DNA of 64,000 nucleotides, from the NCBI GenBank assembly GCA_029558835.1, contig JAKQDH010000060.1, positions 1-64,000 on the forward strand, read 5' to 3'. The position numbers and the translations under genes are program-made. Under the pieces are notes generated by a model. That model ran no database searches. It saw nothing but the letters and a program-made list of their open reading frames with translations, and was not told where the DNA came from. Positions 6,523 through 16,270 of the stretch are shown piece by piece. Position 1 is the stretch's first letter; each line of letters begins with the position of its first letter. The DNA is from Planctomycetota bacterium. GTDB lineage: Bacteria > Planctomycetota > Phycisphaerae > UBA1845.

Positions 6523-8619
6523 GTGCACATCCTCGAACCGTACACGACCTACGTGTTGGACTACCGGGCTGGCACCGACGCGGTCAACTACTACCTGCTG
6601 GCCGCGTTGACCGACACCGGCGCCGACGCCTTCTCGAACGCCGGGCCGGCGCCCAGCGGGGTCTGGGCCGCGACGGGCAACTTCCAGGCTGCGGAGATTC
6701 CCGAGGAGTTCCGGCCGAGCCTGGAGGGCGGCGATGACCTGCCGCCGGACTTCTACCTGGCCCAGGTCCTCTCCGATGAGGTGACCGCGGGGTATGCGGG
6801 GCCGCGGGCGCCGCTGTGCACGTTCACCACCGGGCCGGCCGGGCGGGTGTACCTCGACCTGCGCATGTACCTCTGTGACCCGGACACCGGACAGTACGTC
6901 TGCCTGCGGGCCGGGCGGGGGTTCCTGGTGGCCGAGGAGATCGGCTTGCGCGGTGGCCGCCGTTCCCTTGTGGGCGAGGATTCCGCCTCGCGCGCCGCCC
7001 GCGGAGCCCTGACGCCCGAGGCCGTCGCGGCGTGTGTCGAAGGGGGCCCGGCCGGGCTCGGCTGGCTGGCGCGGCTGGCGGTATTGGCGGCCGCGGTCGG
7101 GCTTGATCCGCCGACCTGGCCCTCGGCCGACCTCGACGGCGACGGGGATGTCGATCTGGCGGACTTCGCCCTGCTGGCGAGCAGCTTCGGGGCGACGGGC
7201 GGGGCGACGTACACGTGGGACGCGGAGAATCGGCTCTTGGCCGTCACGCCCGCGTATCGGGTGATCGGCGGCGACCGGAAGGTCGAGTTTGGGTATGATT
7301 ACCTGGGGCGGCGGGTGGTGAAACGGGTCTACGCGTGGAACGGCTCGGCCTGGGTCCCACCCGTGAACGAGTGTGCAGTGCGCAAGTTCGTTTACGACGG
7401 CTGGCGGGTGATCATGGAGCTCGATGGGTCCAACGGTGACGCGGTGCTCCGCCAGCACACCTGGGGCCTGGACCTCAGCGGCTCGCTGGAGGGGGCTGGC
7501 GGCATCGGCGGCCTGCTGGGCACGCTGGACACCGCCGGCACCGTCACGACAGCCGACGACCGCACGTTCATCCACTTCTACGACGCCAACGGCAACGTCG
7601 GCCAAGTGCTGGAGACGACGCCCGGCCCCAACTTCGGCACCATCGCCGCCAGCTACCTGTACACGCCCTACGGCTCCCGCCTCAACACGCCGCCTTCCGG
7701 GCACGACGCCTACGACCAGCCCTTCCGCTTCAGCACCAAGTGGTTCGACGCGGAGACCGCCCTCGGCTACTGGGGGCGCCGCTACTACCACGCGGAAATG
7801 GGGCGTTGGATCAGCGAAGACCCTGTTGGCGAACGCGGCGGCTGGAACCTGTACCGTTACGTCCGATCCCGCCCCAACCAGTGGATCGACGCGATCGGCC
7901 TCCAGGTGCAGGATCCCGATGCGCAGCCCGGCCCTCGGCCCGCTGACCCGGAGCCCAATGTCGATGCACCTTGTCGCCCGGGCTTGTGGAAAGGTAAGCC
8001 TGACCCCCACACAAACTCCAGCGTCCAACCGCTACCCAATCCGAACTACAAGCGGCCGACCAACTGCTGCGACCGCAAGAAGAATGGAGAGGATGTTGTC
8101 TCCAAGCCCGACAACTGCTTCTTGATCGCTGGTTCCGCACAGACCGCACCCGGTCATTGCTCCGCCGGCCTTGAGGGCTGCATCGAGGGGATCGCCATCA
8201 CCCTGGTTGGGCATACTTTCGGGGCCCGCTACTGTTACGATGATTACCTGATTTCCGCCACAGACAAGGGGAAGGGCGCGATTTACGAGTGCTGCTGCCT
8301 GTCAGATGCCGAGAAGACGAAGCTCGAGACGCAGTTTGACGAGATCATCCGCACGGGCGGACGGACCGGCAAGCTTCCCGGGGTGTACCTGCCAACTGTC
8401 AACGACTGTAGCCATGCGGCCCTGGCGCTTGTCGGCGGCCTGGGTTGCCCCGCTCTTCCCACTAAACCGCCCGAGCCGACGCAGGAACAACTGGGAGAAC
8501 ACGGCGTGGCTTACCACGCTATGAAGGCTATGATGGCAAACAGCAAGTATTGCGGCGTGAAATACTGGATCGACGATCCGTACTACACATCCAGACCGAT
8601 TCAAGCTCACGGGAAGTAG
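6523..8619 (+). CDS. RHS-core protein with dockerin-like segment and variable C-terminus
   Basis: Probable 5'-truncated gene of 698 codons. The frame opens at a TGA just after the cydA remnant, and the GTG start has no ribosome site. Residues 1-195 are unrecognised. Residues about 199-222 (DLDGDGDVDLADFALLASSF) form a dockerin-like calcium repeat fused directly to an RHS core (TYTWDAENRL, FGYDYLGRRVVKRVY, YFYDANGNVGQ-like, YTPYGSRL, LGYWGRRYYHAEMGRWISED). The core ends at RPNQWIDAIGL, where polymorphic-toxin RHS proteins switch to a variable domain. The 238-residue tail is Cys-rich and contains LPTVNDCSHAALALVGGLG, faintly like a papain/NlpC-type Cys helix. Function of the tail is unknown. 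A small secreted protein follows 25 bases later, as an immunity gene would. Confidence 0.75.
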   Translation: MHILEPYTTYVLDYRAGTDAVNYYLLAALTDTGADAFSNAGPAPSGVWAATGNFQAAEIPEEFRPSLEGGDDLPPDFYLAQVLSDEVTAGYAGPRAPLCTFTTGPAGRVYLDLRMYLCDPDTGQYVCLRAGRGFLVAEEIGLRGGRRSLVGEDSASRAARGALTPEAVAACVEGGPAGLGWLARLAVLAAAVGLDPPTWPSADLDGDGDVDLADFALLASSFGATGGATYTWDAENRLLAVTPAYRVIGGDRKVEFGYDYLGRRVVKRVYAWNGSAWVPPVNECAVRKFVYDGWRVIMELDGSNGDAVLRQHTWGLDLSGSLEGAGGIGGLLGTLDTAGTVTTADDRTFIHFYDANGNVGQVLETTPGPNFGTIAASYLYTPYGSRLNTPPSGHDAYDQPFRFSTKWFDAETALGYWGRRYYHAEMGRWISEDPVGERGGWNLYRYVRSRPNQWIDAIGLQVQDPDAQPGPRPADPEPNVDAPCRPGLWKGKPDPHTNSSVQPLPNPNYKRPTNCCDRKKNGEDVVSKPDNCFLIAGSAQTAPGHCSAGLEGCIEGIAITLVGHTFGARYCYDDYLISATDKGKGAIYECCCLSDAEKTKLETQFDEIIRTGGRTGKLPGVYLPTVNDCSHAALALVGGLGCPALPTKPPEPTQEQLGEHGVAYHAMKAMMANSKYCGVKYWIDDPYYTSRPIQAHGK

Positions 8620-8644
8620 GATCTTGAATCGCGAGGGCAAACCC

Positions 8645-9112
8645 ATGAAGCTGTCGCGCTTGGCTATAACAACCATCGCCGGTGCTGTCCTGCTACCCGG
8701 TGGTTGCCATGAATGCGCCCCGAATCGCTTTGACCACGCAACAAAGTGGTACGAGTACGATTTTAAACCCGGGCCAGGGATCGCGGGGTTCACATATTCA
8801 TTTGCTGACAACACTGTGGTTGCTAGGATGTTTGTTGCTTCATTGCAGGATGGCGTGCTGCACGAGAGTGCTGAATACCAATATCAGATGACGATTCTGC
8901 AGAAGGTGGCCGACGGCTACTTGGTGGTTGCGCCCAGGGGTCGCGGCGTTGTGCGGTTTGATGGAGAGGACTTGCTTCTCGAATGGGATGGGCGTGGCGC
9001 GAATGAACCTGAAAGGAGGCTTACCTCCGCTCCCCCCAATATTCCCGAGCTGCGCAAGCAATGGGAAGCACAGGCCGGCATGTCGGTGGAGGAGTTCCTT
9101 AAGGACGAGTAG
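8645..9112 (+). CDS. Small putative lipoprotein after RHS tip 1 (possible immunity partner)
   Basis: 155 residues from the ATG with GAGGG upstream; an earlier start 7 codons back is possible. The N-terminus MKLSRLAITTIAGAVLLPGG runs into Cys-His-Glu-Cys, a signal peptide with a lipobox-like end, although Pro at -3 is unusual. The mature part is short, polar and beta-rich in appearance (TYSFADNTVVARMF, YQYQMTILQKVADGYLVV, GRGVVRFDGEDLLLEWDG). I do not recognise a family. Its position directly behind the variable RHS tail is that of an immunity or accessory protein. That role is inference by position only. Confidence 0.6.
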   Translation: MKLSRLAITTIAGAVLLPGGCHECAPNRFDHATKWYEYDFKPGPGIAGFTYSFADNTVVARMFVASLQDGVLHESAEYQYQMTILQKVADGYLVVAPRGRGVVRFDGEDLLLEWDGRGANEPERRLTSAPPNIPELRKQWEAQAGMSVEEFLKDE

Positions 9113-9217
9113 GGGGCACTTCGTACTCCGGTGCGGCGAATCTCGTGATGGGGCTGCTGGCTGCAGGGGCATTGGGCTGGAAAACAACGCGCGGGTGCAG
9201 AATACCTGGGGCGGCGG

Positions 9218-10288
9218 GTGTTGAAACGGGTGTACGTGTGGAACGGCTCAGCCTGGGCCGCACCCGAGGGCGACGGCGAGTACGCAGTGCGCAAGTTCGT
9301 CTACGACGGCTGGCGGGTGATCATGGAGCTGGACGGGTCCAACGGGGACGCGGTGCTGCGTGAGCACACCTGGGGCCTGGACCTCAGCGGCTCGCTCGAA
9401 GGGGCCGGCGGCATCGGCGGCCTGCTCGGCACGCACGACACCCTCGGGACCGCTGGTTCCGGCGACGACCGGACGTTCATCTACTTCTACGACGCCAACG
9501 GCAACGTCGGCCAAGTGCTGGAGACGACGGCCGGGGCGAACTGCGGCACCGTTGCGGCCCACTACGTCTACACCCCGTACGGCGCCCGCCTCAACGCGCC
9601 CGCCCAGAACGAGTACGCCCAGCCCTTCCGCTTCAGCACGAAGTGGTTCGACGAGGAGACCGGCCTGGGCTACTGGGGGTACCGGTACTACTCGCCCGAG
9701 CTGGGGCGGTGGATGAGCAGAGACCCAATCGAGGAACAAGGTGGGGTCAACCTGTATGAGTACGTTCAAAGCATGCCTCTGACGCTCAGTGATCCCACAG
9801 GGCTCAAGCCGCCGATCACATGCTGTTCTCACGAAGGTTGTAAGTGGTCCGGACAGGTGACTATTACGGGCTGGTCACTTCTGATCGGCGGGTTCTCAAG
9901 CGCTCGCATCGACGCGACGGCTATGGATACTACGGGCTGTATATACACTGTGTCCGGTGCCGGTACCAAACGTCTCTCTGGTGCTGTCTTTGGGGTTGGG
10001 TACTTCTCCACGTCAGGGACTTTCAGCGGAGTGGACGCACCCTGCCGCTGGCCAATCGCCCACGGGGATAGTGCCTCAGTCGCACTGCTCGGGTTTGGAG
10101 CTTCCGGTTCCGTCCCTATATCGATTAACACAGCTCATTTTACTGTTGGTAAAATCCAGTTCTTCGACTGGTGGGAGGTTGGTGGGGCCAATGTGTATTG
10201 CGCTGGTGGCGGTTTTACGGTTCCGTTGCAGACGGTGCAACGCGTGCAGAGCCCGTTGGACGATGACTGCAAGGAGTCAGTGGGATGA
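9218..10288 (+). CDS. Orphan RHS tip 2 with a different C-terminal domain
   Basis: Homology to the first RHS core begins abruptly near 9200 (YLGRRVLKRVYVWNGSAW) and continues at high nucleotide identity through GLGYWGYRYYSPELGRWMSR and LYEYVQSMPLTLSDPTGL, the canonical DPxGL end of an RHS core. The tail of about 160 residues then differs completely from tip 1: CCSHEGCKWSGQVTITGW followed by a Gly/Ser/Thr-rich, probably beta-sheet domain with several Cys. Without the N-terminal part of a full RHS protein this is a displaced 'orphan' cassette of the kind known from rhs/cdi loci. The TTG start is nominal, since expression may need recombination with an upstream core. Tail function is unknown. 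Confidence 0.7.
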   Translation: MLKRVYVWNGSAWAAPEGDGEYAVRKFVYDGWRVIMELDGSNGDAVLREHTWGLDLSGSLEGAGGIGGLLGTHDTLGTAGSGDDRTFIYFYDANGNVGQVLETTAGANCGTVAAHYVYTPYGARLNAPAQNEYAQPFRFSTKWFDEETGLGYWGYRYYSPELGRWMSRDPIEEQGGVNLYEYVQSMPLTLSDPTGLKPPITCCSHEGCKWSGQVTITGWSLLIGGFSSARIDATAMDTTGCIYTVSGAGTKRLSGAVFGVGYFSTSGTFSGVDAPCRWPIAHGDSASVALLGFGASGSVPISINTAHFTVGKIQFFDWWEVGGANVYCAGGGFTVPLQTVQRVQSPLDDDCKESVG

Positions 10289-10341
10289 TCTGGAATGGGC
10301 GGGCCCGAACATGAGTCCAGAAGGAATCTCGTGGTGTTGAG

Positions 10342-10863
10342 ATGCGAGTGGTGTACGGCTGCACTTCGCCCACAACGAAGCGTAGGCGACTAACCGTCAC
10401 TACCCTTTCGCTGTGTGGCTCTGCTGTGGTACTCGCCCTAGTCGGCTACATCGCCTTCGTCGGCTATCGGCACCGCGCCATTATCCGGGATGCTCGCGTT
10501 GCCTACGAAACGAGCCGACCGAATCCCGCATGGTCACCCGGGTCCCTCGATTTCCTCACATTCGGCCTCGGCGCAGGGCAAACGGAGACCGACGTGAATC
10601 GTGCGTTACCGGCTCCAACAGCGACAGTGATGCACGGAAGCCAAGTGGATCCGCCGTGGAAGGGGTTCGTCAACCGCTACGAGTATAGACGGGGTCCGAT
10701 ATTCAACGTACCGTGGCTGGGGATCCAGCGTTTCGAGAGCATAGAGATTCTGTACGTCTACTTCGATGAATCTGGCAGGGCGGTGCGTATGAGGGTACAT
10801 CATCACGGGCTAGCCGCTCGCCCCAGTGATTCCGTCGAAGACGTTCTGCTGCCTGCTCCCTGA
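10342..10863 (+). CDS. Membrane-anchored hypothetical protein after RHS tip 2
   Basis: 173 residues. A short basic N-terminus precedes one TM helix (TLSLCGSAVVLALVGYIAFV), then a soluble domain of about 125 residues ending in LYVYFDESGRAVRMRVHHH. The segment FLTFGLGAGQTETDVNRALP resembles the start of small BamE/SmpA-like folds (G.s..eV...lG.P), and YEYRRGPIFN...ILYVYFDESGRAV continues that pattern, but I could not test it. It lies 53 bases after tip 2 and, like the protein after tip 1, is exported or membrane-bound. Possible immunity or accessory partner, by position only. Confidence 0.6.
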   Translation: MRVVYGCTSPTTKRRRLTVTTLSLCGSAVVLALVGYIAFVGYRHRAIIRDARVAYETSRPNPAWSPGSLDFLTFGLGAGQTETDVNRALPAPTATVMHGSQVDPPWKGFVNRYEYRRGPIFNVPWLGIQRFESIEILYVYFDESGRAVRMRVHHHGLAARPSDSVEDVLLPAP

Positions 10864-10871
10864 AAATACGG

Positions 10872-11100
10872 TTGACTCCCCTGCTGGCCAACAGCTTCGG
10901 GGCGACCGGCGGGGCGACGTACACGTGGGACGCGGAGAACCGGCTGGTGGGCGTCACGCCGGCGTATCGGGTGATCGGCGGCGACCGGAAGGTGGAATTC
11001 GGGTATGATTATCTTGGGCGGCGGGTGGTGAAACGGGTGTACGTGTGGAACGGCTCGGCCTGGGTCGCACCCCAGGGCGCGGGCGAGTTCGTGATGTGGT
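10872..11100 (+). pseudogene. RHS core fragment 3 (truncated copy)
   Basis: A third copy of the same core starts inside the dockerin-like motif (LLANSFGATGGATYTWDAEN) and stays nearly identical to 7174-7370 through FGYDYLGRRVVKRVYVWN. It breaks off after APQGAG, where copy 1 continues into AVRKFVYDGW. Beyond about 11090 the frame encodes unrelated sequence. No tail or partner gene is attached. This is a decayed or rearranged cassette and marks the right end of the RHS array. Confidence 0.7.
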
Positions 11101-11115
11101 TCGCGGACCTCCTGA

Positions 11116-11469
11116 GCACGACCGGATTCCCCGGGGCCCTTCACATTCGCCGAGTTCAGGGCGGCCGTCGAGGACCTGACGGGCTTCTGCGCGGCCCACC
11201 TCAGCCCGGCCGACCGCGCGGGACTGATCTGCCTGCTGCAAGGCCCCCAGCGTGCCTACGCCAGCGAGCAGGTCGAGGCACTTATCCCCGACATTGTCGC
11301 GGCTTTGCAGGAGCGCCCCGGCCGGATAACCTATCAGCATGTTGAAGAACGCCTCGTGAGCGCCGGGATCCCCCGCGATCCGTGCGGCAGGGGCATCGCG
11401 TGTCGGCCGCAGGGGGCCGACGCTACTTGTTCAACAGACTGCTGTGCGAGCGTGGGCGGCGGGCGCTGA
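11116..11469 (+). pseudogene. Unrecognised ORF remnant without start codon
   Basis: In a different frame from RHS fragment 3, an open stretch of about 117 codons encodes FTFAEFRAAVEDLTGFCAAH, LSPADRAGLICLLQGPQRAY and VEALIPDIVAALQERPG, helical and protein-like in composition. It lacks an ATG or a usable GTG near its 5' end and closes with a Cys-rich tail. It may be the 3' part of a gene truncated by the RHS rearrangement. Family not recognised. Confidence 0.3.
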
Positions 11470-11556
11470 GACTCGTCCGCCGTCGGCGCGTTGCCGCCGG
11501 GATCGCCGGCAGCCGCGCTCGTCCGAGGGGTCGCAGACCGTTACCGGGGTCCGATC

Positions 11557-12513
11557 ATGGCTCAGAGCAAGCTTATCGTCGTGGCATTGGGCGGCAACGC
11601 CATTTCCAAGCCCGACCAGCAGGGCAACGTGGCCGAGCAGTTCGCCAACTCCCGGGCGACGGCCCGGCAGCTTGCCGACCTCATCGAGCAGGGCTACCAA
11701 CTGCTGGTCACCCACGGTAACGGACCCCAGATCGGCAACTTCCTGTTGCGTAACGAGGCGGGCGCGGGCTTGATCTACCCCCTGCCGATGGAGGTGGCCG
11801 TCGCCCATGTGCAGGGCGGCATGGGCTACATGATCGCCCAGACGCTCAGCAACGAGCTGCGGACCCGCAACCTCGACCGGATCGTCAGCACGATCATCAC
11901 CACGGTCCTGCTGGACCGGGCGGACCCCGCCTTCGCCAATCCGACCAAGCCGGTGGGGCGGGTTTTCGATCGGGCCGACGCCGATAGGTTCGCCCGCGAG
12001 GGCTGGCACATCAAGGAAGTCGAGCCCGGCAAGTTTCGCCGCGTCGTGCCGTCACCGTTGCCACGACAGATCATGGAGATCGAACTCATCCGCGAGGCGG
12101 TGGCAGCCGGGCATACGTTGATCGCCTGTGGCGGCGGCGGCGTGCCCGTGGTTCGCCATGACGACGGTGACTTGACGGGCACGGCGGCCGTCATCGACAA
12201 GGACCTGGCCAGCGCCCTGCTGGCCGCCCAGCTTGGTGCCGCTGCCCTGCTGATTCTGACCGCCATTGAGGCCGTCTGCGTCAACTACAATCGTGCTGAT
12301 GCCCGGCGTCTGGACCGCATGACGGTGTCCGAGGCGCGTCGCTGGCTGGCGGAGGGACAGTTCCCGCCCGGCTCGATGGGCCCCAAGATTCAGGGGGCAA
12401 TCGACTTCCTCTCGGCAGAGACCCACCCTGACGCGTTCGTTGCCATCGGCCCGCTCGAACGCGCGCTCGACACGCTGGCGGGACGCGTCGGCACGCGCAT
12501 CACACACGGCTGA
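11557..12513 (+). CDS. arcC: Carbamate kinase
   Basis: Amino-acid-kinase fold enzyme of 318 residues that makes ATP and carbamate from carbamoyl phosphate and ADP in the cytosol, or the reverse. Diagnostic motifs are VVALGGNAI near the N-terminus, LLVTHGNGPQIG, MGYMIAQTL, LIACGGGGVPVV with a following VIDKDLASALLA, and PGSMGPKIQGAIDFL near the C-terminus. Length and motif order fit ArcC. A start 22 codons upstream is open, but MAQSKLIVVALGGNA matches the family. No arcA, arcB or arcD is adjacent, so the source of carbamoyl phosphate is not shown. The only deiminase-like gene nearby is the secreted one at 14.4 kb on the other strand. Confidence 0.95.
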   Translation: MAQSKLIVVALGGNAISKPDQQGNVAEQFANSRATARQLADLIEQGYQLLVTHGNGPQIGNFLLRNEAGAGLIYPLPMEVAVAHVQGGMGYMIAQTLSNELRTRNLDRIVSTIITTVLLDRADPAFANPTKPVGRVFDRADADRFAREGWHIKEVEPGKFRRVVPSPLPRQIMEIELIREAVAAGHTLIACGGGGVPVVRHDDGDLTGTAAVIDKDLASALLAAQLGAAALLILTAIEAVCVNYNRADARRLDRMTVSEARRWLAEGQFPPGSMGPKIQGAIDFLSAETHPDAFVAIGPLERALDTLAGRVGTRITHG

Positions 12514-12595: not shown

Positions 12596-14179
12596 TTAGG
12601 GTCGCGCAGGTGTCGCCGGCGGTGGAGCCTGGGAAGGCGACGCCGCCCCGGACGAGGTCGGAGTGGGACCGGCCTGAGAACCAGTACTCGGCGCCGGCAC
12701 CCTCTGTATTCTAGGCTGCTGTCCCCGCTCCGGGAGCTTGCCGGCGAAGGTCACAGGAACGTGCAACGCGGGAAACCCGGGGTCATCGATGTCGATGACG
12801 ACGTCGGCCCGGGGGCCGCCCTGACGCACGAAGTTTGCCGGAATGGACAACACAACGACCTGCCCGCCGGCCGGCAGGTCCTTCACCTCCACCGACAACT
12901 GCGCGTCGGTTACGCGCGCCCCCTTGATGGGTCGGGGTCGTTGGTCGTACCACGTTACCCGGATTTCCTCGGTCCGGGCGGTGGGCACCGTGGCGGGGAC
13001 GGCAATCTGGGGCGGCTGTGCCTGAGCGTAGGGAGGCAGGTCATAGGTGAACGGGATCGTGGTTTCCGGTGCCTGCTCCACGCCCGTTCGGATGCGGACC
13101 CAACCGCGCCGGATTCCCTTGGGCCACGGCGCAGACAGCGTGATGTCCACCGCGTACCTCTCACCGGGAACCAGCTCCCGTGCCACGGCGCGGACCACGT
13201 CCGGCTCGCTCGTCCTGACAACCTCGATTCGCAGCGGGCCCCCGTCACCGCGCAGCAGAGACACTGTGGTGCTCCGTTCCGACTCCGTGCGCTCGATCCG
13301 CCCGAAGGCAACGTACGTCGGATCACTGCGGAAAGGCGCGAGGACCTTGGTCAGGCAGCGCAGGGTCTCACGCCGGTGGTCGGGGTCATTGGTGTTAACC
13401 GTAACACCCTTCGATAGTTCCCCCGACAAGTTGTTGGTGGAAATCGTTACCGTGAATCGCTCCGTGGCTCCGGGCGCCAGCACGCGGTCAGCCTGACCGC
13501 TGATCTTCATGCCTCACCCACCTTTGAGATTGACCTGCAAGTCGCCCGTGCCTTCGTTGCGGATTTCAAAAGGGAACTCGGCCTTGGCACCCTGCCAGAC
13601 GGGATCCAATCGGACGTTGGGCCTGGCGCAAGCGAACCGCGGCTGCCCCGCGGCAGGCGGTGGCTCCGAAGCGTTGCTTGCCTGGGCCGCTTCTTCCTCC
13701 TTGCTGGGAGGCGAAACGTCGCCACAGCCGGCGTGGGGACCGGCCGCGGAGGGCTTGGCCGGCGCCGCTGCCGCTGTGGCGGGCTCGAGCACAGGAGGCT
13801 TGTCCTGGACGGCAACCCGGGCGTCGCCGGCCGTCGAACCTCCGGATGGCGCCGACGAATCGACGTTCACCGGGCGGGCACTCGTCACCGCGCCCGACGC
13901 ATCGCCGCCGGCCACACCTCTCGTGACACGCATCCGCTCTCGGGGCGCCGTCGGCCCAGCCGCAGGAGCCGGTATTTCAGCGGGAGAGACAGGCGTCGCC
14001 GGTGGCGCGGCCGTGGAGGACGGCGGCGCGGTCGCTGCCGTAGACGGGCCGGCCGTCTGCCCAGTAGAGGTACAGCCGATAACCAGCAAGGTCAGCGTCA
14101 CGCCCATAACCAGGGCCACCCGCCAACCAGCGCCGGCGTGCACAAACCGGGACGACTCACGCTCCGGTGCAGCGTACAT
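12596..14179 (-). CDS. DUF1573-like lipoprotein with in-frame TGA at codon 222 (candidate selenoprotein)
   Basis: Read as one frame this is 527 residues. The first segment (221 codons from the AAGGAG-preceded ATG) has a TM/signal with lipobox LLVIGC, an Ala/Pro/Ser/Thr-rich linker, then ARPNVRLDPVWQGAKAEFPF and EIRNEGTGDLQVNLKGG, the start of a DUF1573/Ig-like domain. A TGA (13514-13516) follows, then GMKISGQADRVLAPGATERF in the same frame, which continues the same domain (VTVNTNDPDHRRE) and two more beta domains to a Pro/Thr/Ser-rich end. In DUF1573 proteins a Cys-Gly pair sits at this point, so TGA replaces the Cys codon. A 7-bp hairpin lies 13 bases downstream. Alternatives: a nonsense mutation, or reinitiation at ATG 13508-13510, which follows GGTGGGTGAGG. 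Confidence 0.7.
13484..13500 (-). other. SECIS-like hairpin downstream of in-frame TGA
   Basis: On the minus strand, starting 13 bases after the TGA, GCGGTCA and TGACCGC form a perfect 7-bp stem closed by a GGC loop. The TGA-to-loop distance of 20 bases and a G in the first loop positions fit the published bacterial SECIS consensus (apical loop roughly 16-37 bases after UGA, G among the first two loop bases). The stem is made of Ser-Gly-Gln-Ala-Asp-Arg codons, so it could also be chance in GC-rich coding DNA. Confidence 0.4.
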
Positions 14180-14423: not shown

Positions 14424-15761
14424 TTAGAAGAGCAACACGAACTCGGCCCAATCCTCGAGGTCCACGTCGCCGTCACGGTCCAGATCGGCCATCAGGAAGT
14501 CGTAGGCATCGCAGCCCGAAGGGGGCGTGGTGACGTCCGGGCCGGCGAGGCACTGCTGGAACGTCGGGTAGTCCGCAATGGTCACGTCGCCATCGTGACT
14601 CAGATCACCGGGCACCGGGTACTTCGGCACGTGCATGACGATGCAGTGCATCGCCCCGGCCGCGCCGATGATGCTGGCGCAGTTCACCTGAATCAGCGTG
14701 TAGCCGGGAAACGCGGTCTGAAACACCGCCAGGGCTTGCGCGTCCTGGGAGGTGTACGAGCCTCCGAATCGCGGGACGAGCACCAGGTCATTGATCACCA
14801 CAGCGTTGGTGTACGTGTAGTGCGTACCCCCGGAATTCCAGCCCGGCGTGCGGTAGACCGTGTAGCCCCGCGCCGTCAGCGTCGTCACCGCGTTCTCGGT
14901 AATCGTGTACGGTGTGCCGGCCGACGACGGATACTGCCCGATGATCACCTTCTTGTTGGCCACCGGCAGCATCCACATGTCGATATGCCCGGTCGAGTCG
15001 TAGCTCGACGGAAACCGGTTGAAGATCGTCAGGTTGAGGTTCTGGTACTGGTGGTAGAGGTCGATGACGTTCTGGGCGGTGAGGCCGGGATTCTCGTCCA
15101 GAATCAGCGTCGTCATGAACGCATCGCGATCGGCGAACAGATGGAAGTTGCCACCGCCGTGCGTGAGCGGGATGTCGTACTGCGTCTCACCCCATTGTGC
15201 GCTGATGTAGTCGTTGAGCAGGTTGTCGTTGGGCCGCGGACGGTTGTAGGTGTGGTCGATGATCGCCCGTCGGCGGTTTTCGAAGATGAACCGCGGTCCG
15301 TAGTCGCGAATCCACACCGTGTCCGTCGTGCGGACGAGGAAGCGGACCTGCGTCATGTCGGCGCCCGCCGCGGTCAATGTACTGGTGACCGAAGTCTGCT
15401 CGGAGGCGGTGTCGACGACCATGTAGACGATCGCCGTGGGATCCAGCGTCGTAATGTTCACGGTCATCGTCGTCAGAATGTCGGTGTAAGCCTCCCAGGA
15501 CATGAACAGGCCCTGCTGCGGGTCGTACTCGGACGGGCAGTACACCGCCCCGGTCGGAGGGGCCCGGTAGATGAAGTCCTCTCGGCTCGGCGTCTCGAAC
15601 GGGATGAGCGCCTCTTCCGGCGTCAGGTACTTGGGCAGCCCGTCCGGGTAGTTCTCGGCCACCCAGTCCGGCGACTGCTCGGCGCCCACTTGGGCCCAAC
15701 TCGGCGTCCCCAAGACTCCCCCCACCACCAGCAACACGACGAGCGCAAGCCGGCGACTCAT
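14424..15761 (-). CDS. Secreted agmatine-deiminase-like (PPAD-type) enzyme with dockerin-like tail
   Basis: 445 residues. A signal peptide (RLALVVLLVVGGVLGTPSWA) is followed by a guanidino-modifying enzyme domain of the Porphyromonas peptidyl-arginine deiminase/agmatine deiminase family. TDTVWIRDYGPRFIFE supplies the substrate-binding Asp, LTHGGGNFHLFAD the GGN loop, STGHIDMWMLP the HxD pair, and GAMHCIVMHVP the nucleophilic Cys. The C-terminal 60 residues are a type-I dockerin-like pair (DLSHDGDVTIADYPTFQQCL and DLDRDGDVDLEDWAEF). Cytosolic AguA enzymes lack both signal and tail, so this member probably acts outside the cytoplasm on agmatine or peptidyl-arginine. GGAAGGAG precedes the chosen ATG; the longer open frame upstream is not supported. 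Confidence 0.85.
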   Translation of the reverse strand: MSRRLALVVLLVVGGVLGTPSWAQVGAEQSPDWVAENYPDGLPKYLTPEEALIPFETPSREDFIYRAPPTGAVYCPSEYDPQQGLFMSWEAYTDILTTMTVNITTLDPTAIVYMVVDTASEQTSVTSTLTAAGADMTQVRFLVRTTDTVWIRDYGPRFIFENRRRAIIDHTYNRPRPNDNLLNDYISAQWGETQYDIPLTHGGGNFHLFADRDAFMTTLILDENPGLTAQNVIDLYHQYQNLNLTIFNRFPSSYDSTGHIDMWMLPVANKKVIIGQYPSSAGTPYTITENAVTTLTARGYTVYRTPGWNSGGTHYTYTNAVVINDLVLVPRFGGSYTSQDAQALAVFQTAFPGYTLIQVNCASIIGAAGAMHCIVMHVPKYPVPGDLSHDGDVTIADYPTFQQCLAGPDVTTPPSGCDAYDFLMADLDRDGDVDLEDWAEFVLLF

Positions 15762-16270
15762 ATGGAATGCTCCTTCCGCCAAAGGTACCCCCCGAGAGGA
15801 TTCCCCCCCCCGCTCCAGCCAGGCAGGTTCCGGACGCACGCCCACCCCCGCAGGCGGCTTTCCCGGACCGACGCGAAGTATCCATTCTAGCGGAAAGACC
15901 ACCACGAGGCAACCCGCCACCGCGACGTCGGGCCCGTCCGGGGCACGAAGAGCGTTCCGCCGGGGTAGTCCAGGTCCGACCTCAGCGGCGTACCACCTCC
16001 ACCCTTCAGATGCGCTGGCATCGAGTGCAGGGGCTATCGGCCCTCTCTCGGACCCTCCGACCGGCGCATCCACCCGCCGCTGGTTGCGGCGGCCGGTACG
16101 CCGCATCGCCCGAGGCTGCCGCGTGGTCCCTCCGCGCTCCCGGTCAACGCTCCACCGAGCGTCCTGCCTTGCCCGCCCGGGTGCCGGCAGTAGACTCCCC
16201 CAGGATCGCCGGCCGTGCACCACCCGGGCAAGGTGTGCAACCCGCCCACGGTCCGCGGGAGGATCCGCCG

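What the first reader, a model, noticed from the sequence alone, without database searches (positions are those of the whole stretch)
12596..14179. DUF1573-like lipoprotein with TGA at a conserved Cys-Gly position and a SECIS-like hairpin
Seen: one reading frame of 527 codons is interrupted only by TGA at 13514-13516. The protein sequence continues the same domain on both sides (..DLQVNLKGG-stop-GMKISGQADR..). A perfect 7-bp stem with a GGC loop lies 13 bases downstream, 20 bases from TGA to loop. Known: bacterial SECIS elements sit directly 3' of UGA with this spacing and a loop G. Inference: a new type of selenoprotein, in which Sec replaces the DUF1573 Cys. Competing readings are a nonsense mutation, a sequence error, or TGA-ATG reinitiation (ATG 13508-13510).
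Basis: partly seen in the sequence, partly recalled or inferred. Interest (0 to 1): 0.72.

Follow-up and report, generated by a model that had tools for sequence, protein, structure and literature searches.

The report
Selenium protein with single-selenocysteine DUF1573 domain
An apparently broken gene in a Phycisphaerae-type (Planctomycetota) bacterium is almost certainly an intact selenium-containing exported protein, one of a whole clade of such genes in which an RNA hairpin tells the ribosome to read the stop codon UGA as selenocysteine and in which the usual partner cysteine is missing.

Summary
On the minus strand (14179 to 12596), one 527-codon frame is interrupted only by TGA (13516-13514), and a perfect 7-bp hairpin with loop GGC starts 13 nt downstream. 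It is not chance. In 37 loci from the window's order (window gene included), UGA sits at the same codon. With two related UGC forms, 38 aligned sequences give a stem with 98.1% of cells paired and 37 double changes (0/500 shuffles), largely synonymous. The protein stays under purifying selection after the UGA. The genome has tRNA-Sec(UCA), selA, selB and selD, and one selD itself carries an in-frame TGA. The only Cys form inside the clade lacks the hairpin. So UGA is very probably read as selenocysteine.

"New type of selenoprotein" is overstated: DUF1573 selenoproteins (OS_HP2, motif UGC) are published. What differs is a separate, fully supported clade (100/100) in which Sec stands at the first Cys of the DUF1573 CxC motif while the second Cys is replaced by Thr, Val, Met or others. 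It was found only in the window's order. Its Cys cousins are often fused to thioredoxin/redoxin domains, which suggests periplasmic one-selenol redox chemistry resolved by an external thiol. That function is inferred.

The parts
12596..14179 (-). Selenoprotein gene, 527 codons with TGA at codon 222 read as Sec; stop codon at 12596-12598
   Evidence: homologues on both sides of the TGA
14072..14179 (-). N-terminal signal with lipobox LVIGC; Cys36 at 14074-14072, likely lipid attachment (inferred from motif)
13370..13618 (-). DUF1573 domain, residues 188-270, containing the Sec
   Evidence: PF07610, 29.0 bits against a cut-off of 26.1
13514..13516 (-). In-frame TGA, Sec codon 222, at the position of the first Cys of the DUF1573 CxC motif
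13484..13500 (-). SECIS-type hairpin: 7-bp stem GCGGTCA/TGACCGC, loop GGC at 13493-13491, 13 nt after the TGA
12743..13648 (-). Three tandem Ig-like beta-sandwich domains (about residues 178-281, 282-382, 383-479); the first is ASH/PapD-like (HYDIN type) and carries the Sec
   Evidence: AlphaFold2 mean pLDDT 91.3; domain 1 against HYDIN 2ys4 Z 11.5, rmsd 1.9, 99 residues

Best explanation
The gene encodes an exported lipoprotein in which UGA at codon 222 is translated as selenocysteine. SelB with Sec-tRNA(UCA) is recruited by the hairpin that begins 13 nt after the UGA. The Sec lies after a strand of the first, ASH/PapD-like Ig domain (DUF1573), exactly where relatives have the first Cys of a CGC motif; the second Cys is replaced (Met here). 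The gene belongs to a distinct clade that keeps Sec almost without exception. Most likely mode of action (inferred): a single reactive selenol in the periplasm or at the cell surface, oxidised by a substrate (disulfide, peroxide or similar) and recycled by an external thiol partner such as a TlpA/ResA-like thioredoxin, the kind of domain fused to many Cys-type DUF1573 relatives. Shown: UGA conservation, hairpin covariation, Sec machinery, clade. Inferred: Sec insertion itself, lipidation, redox role and partner. The confidence given is for the Sec-decoding selenoprotein; for the redox role with an external thiol partner it is about 0.5.
For: UGA at the same codon in 37 loci of this clade from the window's order, including a second copy in the same genome. 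Hairpin: 98.1% of cells paired against 85.3% in shuffles and 15-41% when slid; 37 cells with changes on both sides, 0/500 shuffles. The first-pair column shows A-T, G-C, T-A and C-G with synonymous third-position tracking. Cys forms L078 and L085 lack the stem. dN/dS after the UGA is 0.20-0.50, like before it, in the four pairs with measurable dS. tRNA-Sec 68 bits against a cut-off of 47, ARAGORN anticodon tca; selB; selA; selD twice, one with in-frame TGA in ...SCAG-U-AGK.... Tree: UGx clade 100/100, 37 Sec rows and 1 Cys row. All ten Cys relatives scanned by Pfam carry DUF1573 plus redoxin/thioredoxin domains.
Against: No protein or expression data. Presence of selA does not discriminate: 86 of 100 relatives have a selA hit, and 4 of 30 genomes with the gene show none (assemblies 63-87% complete). 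No conserved gene neighbour points to a partner. No second Cys is strictly conserved: two other Cys positions occur in 27 and 30 of 40 sequences and vary independently. The redox role is by analogy.
Confidence: 0.95

Rival explanations
1. Canonical OS_HP2: simply another member of the published DUF1573 selenoprotein family, with nothing distinct about it.
For: Same domain, same UGA position and the same hairpin geometry as the UGC forms L086, L087, L150, L152, L153 and L155; NF041425 matches all 32 members scanned.
Against: The clade is separated from all UGC and CGC proteins with 100/100 support; the second Cys of UxC/UGC, listed as the family's motif in PMC2398784 and PMC13188914, is missing; NF041425 scores 42 bits for the window protein against 83-97 for UGC/CGC forms.
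Confidence: 0.3
2. The selenocysteine is a metal or metalloid ligand (for example copper or mercury) rather than a catalytic redox residue.
For: Exported Ig-like domain with a single selenol; loss of the second Cys fits a role other than an intramolecular dithiol/selenenylsulfide cycle; no conserved enzyme partner nearby.
Against: Cys relatives are fused to thioredoxin/redoxin domains, which points to thiol redox chemistry; no conserved His/Met ligand set was identified.
Confidence: 0.25
3. UGA is a real stop: the gene makes a short 221-residue lipoprotein and a second protein starts at ATG 13510-13508.
For: An ATG lies two codons after the TGA and gives a 304-codon frame.
Against: ATG at that codon in only 5 of 38 aligned sequences; the break would fall inside one Ig domain; hairpin with synonymous covariation; same codon in 37 loci; Sec machinery present.
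Confidence: 0.02
4. Sequencing error or recent nonsense mutation (pseudogene).
For: The genome is a draft of 224 contigs.
Against: The same TGA occurs in about 30 genomes and in a paralogue on another contig; dN/dS stays low after the TGA.
Confidence: 0.005

Closest known systems
OS_HP2 / DUF1573 selenoprotein family (NCBIfam NF041425, Pfam PF07610; PMC2398784, PMC13188914)
   Same: DUF1573 domain, Sec at the first Cys of the CxC motif, same hairpin position
   Different: Published motif is UxC/UGC; here the second Cys is Thr, Val, Met, Phe, Ile or Ser; separate clade; scores less than half of the NF041425 cut-off
Cys-type DUF1573 proteins fused to thioredoxin/redoxin domains
   Same: Homologous domain and following Ig-like region
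   Different: CGC motif, no UGA, no hairpin, C-terminal AhpC-TSA/Redoxin domains that the Sec form lacks
ASH / PapD-like domain of HYDIN and CEP192 (PDB 2ys4, 6fvi) and P. gingivalis protein 2qsv
   Same: Fold of domain 1 (Z 11.5, rmsd 1.9, 99 residues for 2ys4); 2qsv matches two domains (Z 11.8, rmsd 12.4, 193 residues)
   Different: About 12% identity; the eukaryotic proteins are structural and not known to me as selenoproteins; a shared fold shows no function

Membership tests
Bacterial selenoprotein | In-frame UGA aligned with Cys of homologues | tested here: met
   Cys at this column in L078, L085 and the CGC relatives
Bacterial selenoprotein | SECIS hairpin just 3' of the UGA with a loop G | tested here: met
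Bacterial selenoprotein | tRNA-Sec, SelA, SelB and SelD in the genome | tested here: met
Bacterial selenoprotein | Demonstrated Sec in the protein | not testable with these tools
   needs mass spectrometry or selenium-75 labelling
DUF1573 (PF07610) | Whole-protein score over the curated gathering score | tested here: met
   29.0 against 26.1 bits with C written for U; the DNA search of the same place gave 24.4 bits, just under; all 32 clade members match at E up to 0.001
DUF1573 (PF07610) | CxC motif typical of the relatives | tested here: not met
   UGM here; UGT/V/M/F/I/S in the clade
OS_HP2 selenoprotein (NF041425) | Score over the curated cut-off of 100 bits | tested here: not met
   42.1 bits; the cut-off also excludes the UGC and CGC forms scanned (83-97 bits), so it is a strict test
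OS_HP2 selenoprotein (NF041425) | UxC / UGC motif | tested here: not met
   second Cys absent in the window gene and in the whole clade

The most novel reading that the evidence does not exclude
The UGx clade is an undescribed, near-obligate selenoprotein subfamily: an exported Ig-domain lipoprotein or secreted protein whose only invariant redox-capable residue is a lone selenocysteine, with no resolving Cys. Its chemistry would then differ from the dithiol-type CGC/UGC relatives, and current annotation would split its members at the UGA or call them pseudogenes.
Probability: 0.6. Interest if true: 0.55.

Novelty: new variant of a known kind. Interest (0 to 1): 0.46.

Why it matters
It adds a coherent clade of hidden selenoprotein genes in Phycisphaerae-type bacteria, with one to two copies in about a third of sampled genomes of the order. 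It shows Sec kept where the partner Cys was lost, so the DUF1573 function does not always need the CxC pair. Standard gene calling is expected to cut these genes at the UGA.

Tried and rejected
Reinitiation at the downstream ATG (not conserved). Hairpin significance by folding energy in context (z near 0; not informative). Rfam search of the region: no match. Sequence search of solved structures: no match. Conserved operon partners: none; the largest shared neighbour cluster covers 3 loci. selA co-occurrence test: not discriminating (Fisher p = 1). Co-varying Cys pair as resolving disulfide: 22 both, 8 and 5 one only, 5 neither, no clear link. Protein alignment as query for the named-genome scan failed for lack of conserved stretches; the DNA pattern of UGA plus hairpin was used instead, and its hits labelled with other phyla gave no protein match to the query. 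Two further pattern hits elsewhere in the phylum are unrelated.

Full report
What is there. The gene lies on the minus strand, 14179 to 12596. The frame of 527 codons is open except for TGA at 13516-13514, codon 222. Thirteen nucleotides after the TGA begins a perfect 7-bp stem GCGGTCA/TGACCGC with loop GGC. In the whole 64-kb window it is the only one of 1,537 TGA triplets with that geometry and a loop G, and none of about 7,100 control triplets has it.

The genome can make selenocysteine. The assembly (224 contigs, about 91% complete) holds tRNA-Sec over Rfam's cut-off (68 bits) with anticodon TCA, selA and selB on one contig, and two selD genes. One selD has an in-frame TGA in ...ASCAG-U-AGKLP..., which fits the known Sec form of SelD (own knowledge).

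The UGA is conserved. A search of 100 relatives found the best matches almost all interrupted by one TGA. Alignment shows it at the same codon each time, in the context (K/R)xGUG(T/V/M)...DR.I.PG, including a second copy in the window's own genome at G000:C189. With L062 there are 37 loci of this UGx kind from 30 genomes, the window gene included. Conservation runs on both sides of the UGA: dN/dS after it is 0.20-0.50 in the four pairs with measurable dS, like before it. This excludes sequencing error and a recent nonsense mutation.

The hairpin is conserved as RNA. Over 38 UGA-bearing sequences (36 UGx, 2 UGC) 98.1% of cells pair, 4 of 7 pairs have changes on both sides, 37 cells carry double changes, and no shuffle of 500 reaches the covariation score; sliding the partner by 1-3 columns drops pairing to 15-41%. 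Many changes are synonymous: the third base of an Arg codon follows the second base of the codon at the foot of the other arm, and Ser/Ala third bases follow Arg (CGG) or Gln (CAG). The two Cys versions examined, L078 and L085, have no such stem. A Cys version in the UGC group (L170, G065) still carries a 5-bp remnant GGTCA-GTA-TGACC, which reads like a recent Sec-to-Cys change (inference).

Which family. With C written for U, PF07610 (DUF1573) scores 29.0 bits over a cut-off of 26.1, and all 32 clade members scanned match it. NCBIfam's OS_HP2 (seleno)protein model also matches all 32, but the window protein reaches 42 of the 100 bits required; UGC and CGC forms from the same order reach 83-97. 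The literature lists DUF1573/OS_HP2 as a selenoprotein family with UxC or UGC (PMC2398784; PMC13188914; PMC9312934). So Sec in DUF1573 is known. Here Sec takes the first Cys of that motif, and the second Cys is Thr (20), Val (8), Met (5), Phe, Ile or Ser among the 36 aligned UGx sequences.

Phylogeny and range. In trees of 62 and 71 sequences the UGx proteins form one group with 100/100 support, containing one Cys protein (L078) nested deep inside, which suggests a secondary Sec-to-Cys change. The UGC proteins mix with CGC proteins on the other side of the tree. An exact DNA pattern scan of about 85,000 named species genomes returned family members only in MAGs labelled Phycisphaerae/Phycisphaerales or Planctomycetota, or merely 'bacterium' (L126). 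Outside the window's order, 199 genomes of the phylum gave no protein match at 1e-22 and 392 gave no pattern match in the family. The pattern scan sees only the commonest hairpin sequence, so it is a lower bound.

Structure and export. The window protein has a lipobox (LVIGC); some relatives have one too and others look like ordinary signal peptides (by eye). AlphaFold2 gives three Ig-like domains, mean pLDDT 91.3. Domain 1 matches the ASH/PapD-like domain of HYDIN (2ys4: Z 11.5, rmsd 1.9, 99 residues). The Sec lies between the strands at model residues 45-50 and 55-58.

Mechanism. Shown: conserved UGA, covarying hairpin, Sec machinery, one clade. Established knowledge: bacterial SelB binds such hairpins and delivers Sec-tRNA at the UGA. 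Inferred: a single selenol acting outside the cytoplasm. The best clue to chemistry is that all ten Cys-type relatives scanned carry DUF1573 followed by one or more thioredoxin/redoxin domains; the Sec clade lacks such domains and no neighbour gene is conserved, so its electron donor would act in trans. Metal binding remains open. Two further Cys positions occur in 27 and 30 of 40 sequences but do not vary together.

Verdict. A genuine, conserved selenoprotein gene. The claim of a new type is reduced to a new variant: a resolving-Cys-less sister clade of the known DUF1573/OS_HP2 selenoproteins.

Noticed in passing
L159 (G000:C161:29563-30486): One of the two selD genes in the window's genome has an in-frame TGA in SCAG-U-AGKLP, apparently a Sec-containing SelD; the other copy (L158) has no TGA and lies in a 779-codon frame fused to an upstream aminotransferase-like (NifS-like, by eye) sequence.
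   Followed up: partly
L078 (G087:C4), codon 288 of the frame at 6900-8600: The only Cys form nested in the UGx clade reads KPCCGAK (CCG instead of GUG) and has lost the hairpin: an apparent Sec-to-Cys change.
   Followed up: partly
L170 (G065:C1), near the CGC motif: A Cys-type (CGC) protein nested among UGC selenoproteins keeps a 5-bp remnant of the hairpin after the Cys codon, like a fossil SECIS.
   Followed up: partly
L056 (G017:C19), 7184-9685: Two UGx selenoprotein genes stand in tandem in one genome.
   Followed up: no
window 11491-12513 (+) and 14424-16223 (-): The flanking genes are an amino-acid-kinase family protein (carbamate-kinase-like) and a Porphyromonas-type peptidyl-arginine/agmatine deiminase with a C-terminal dockerin-like tail; no equivalent pair was seen among the shared neighbour clusters of the other loci.
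   Followed up: partly
window 6523-11345 (+): Several RHS/YD-repeat-like C-terminal fragments in a row (DxxGRRVxKRVY...LGYWGYRYY motifs) with different tails, which looks like a polymorphic toxin-type cassette array; Pfam gave no match for two of them.
   Followed up: no
G053, G059, G063, G066, G081, G084 selA hits: In six genomes of one family (f4), selA matches as two pieces split near model position 260 within one frame, which suggests an insertion inside SelA.
   Followed up: no
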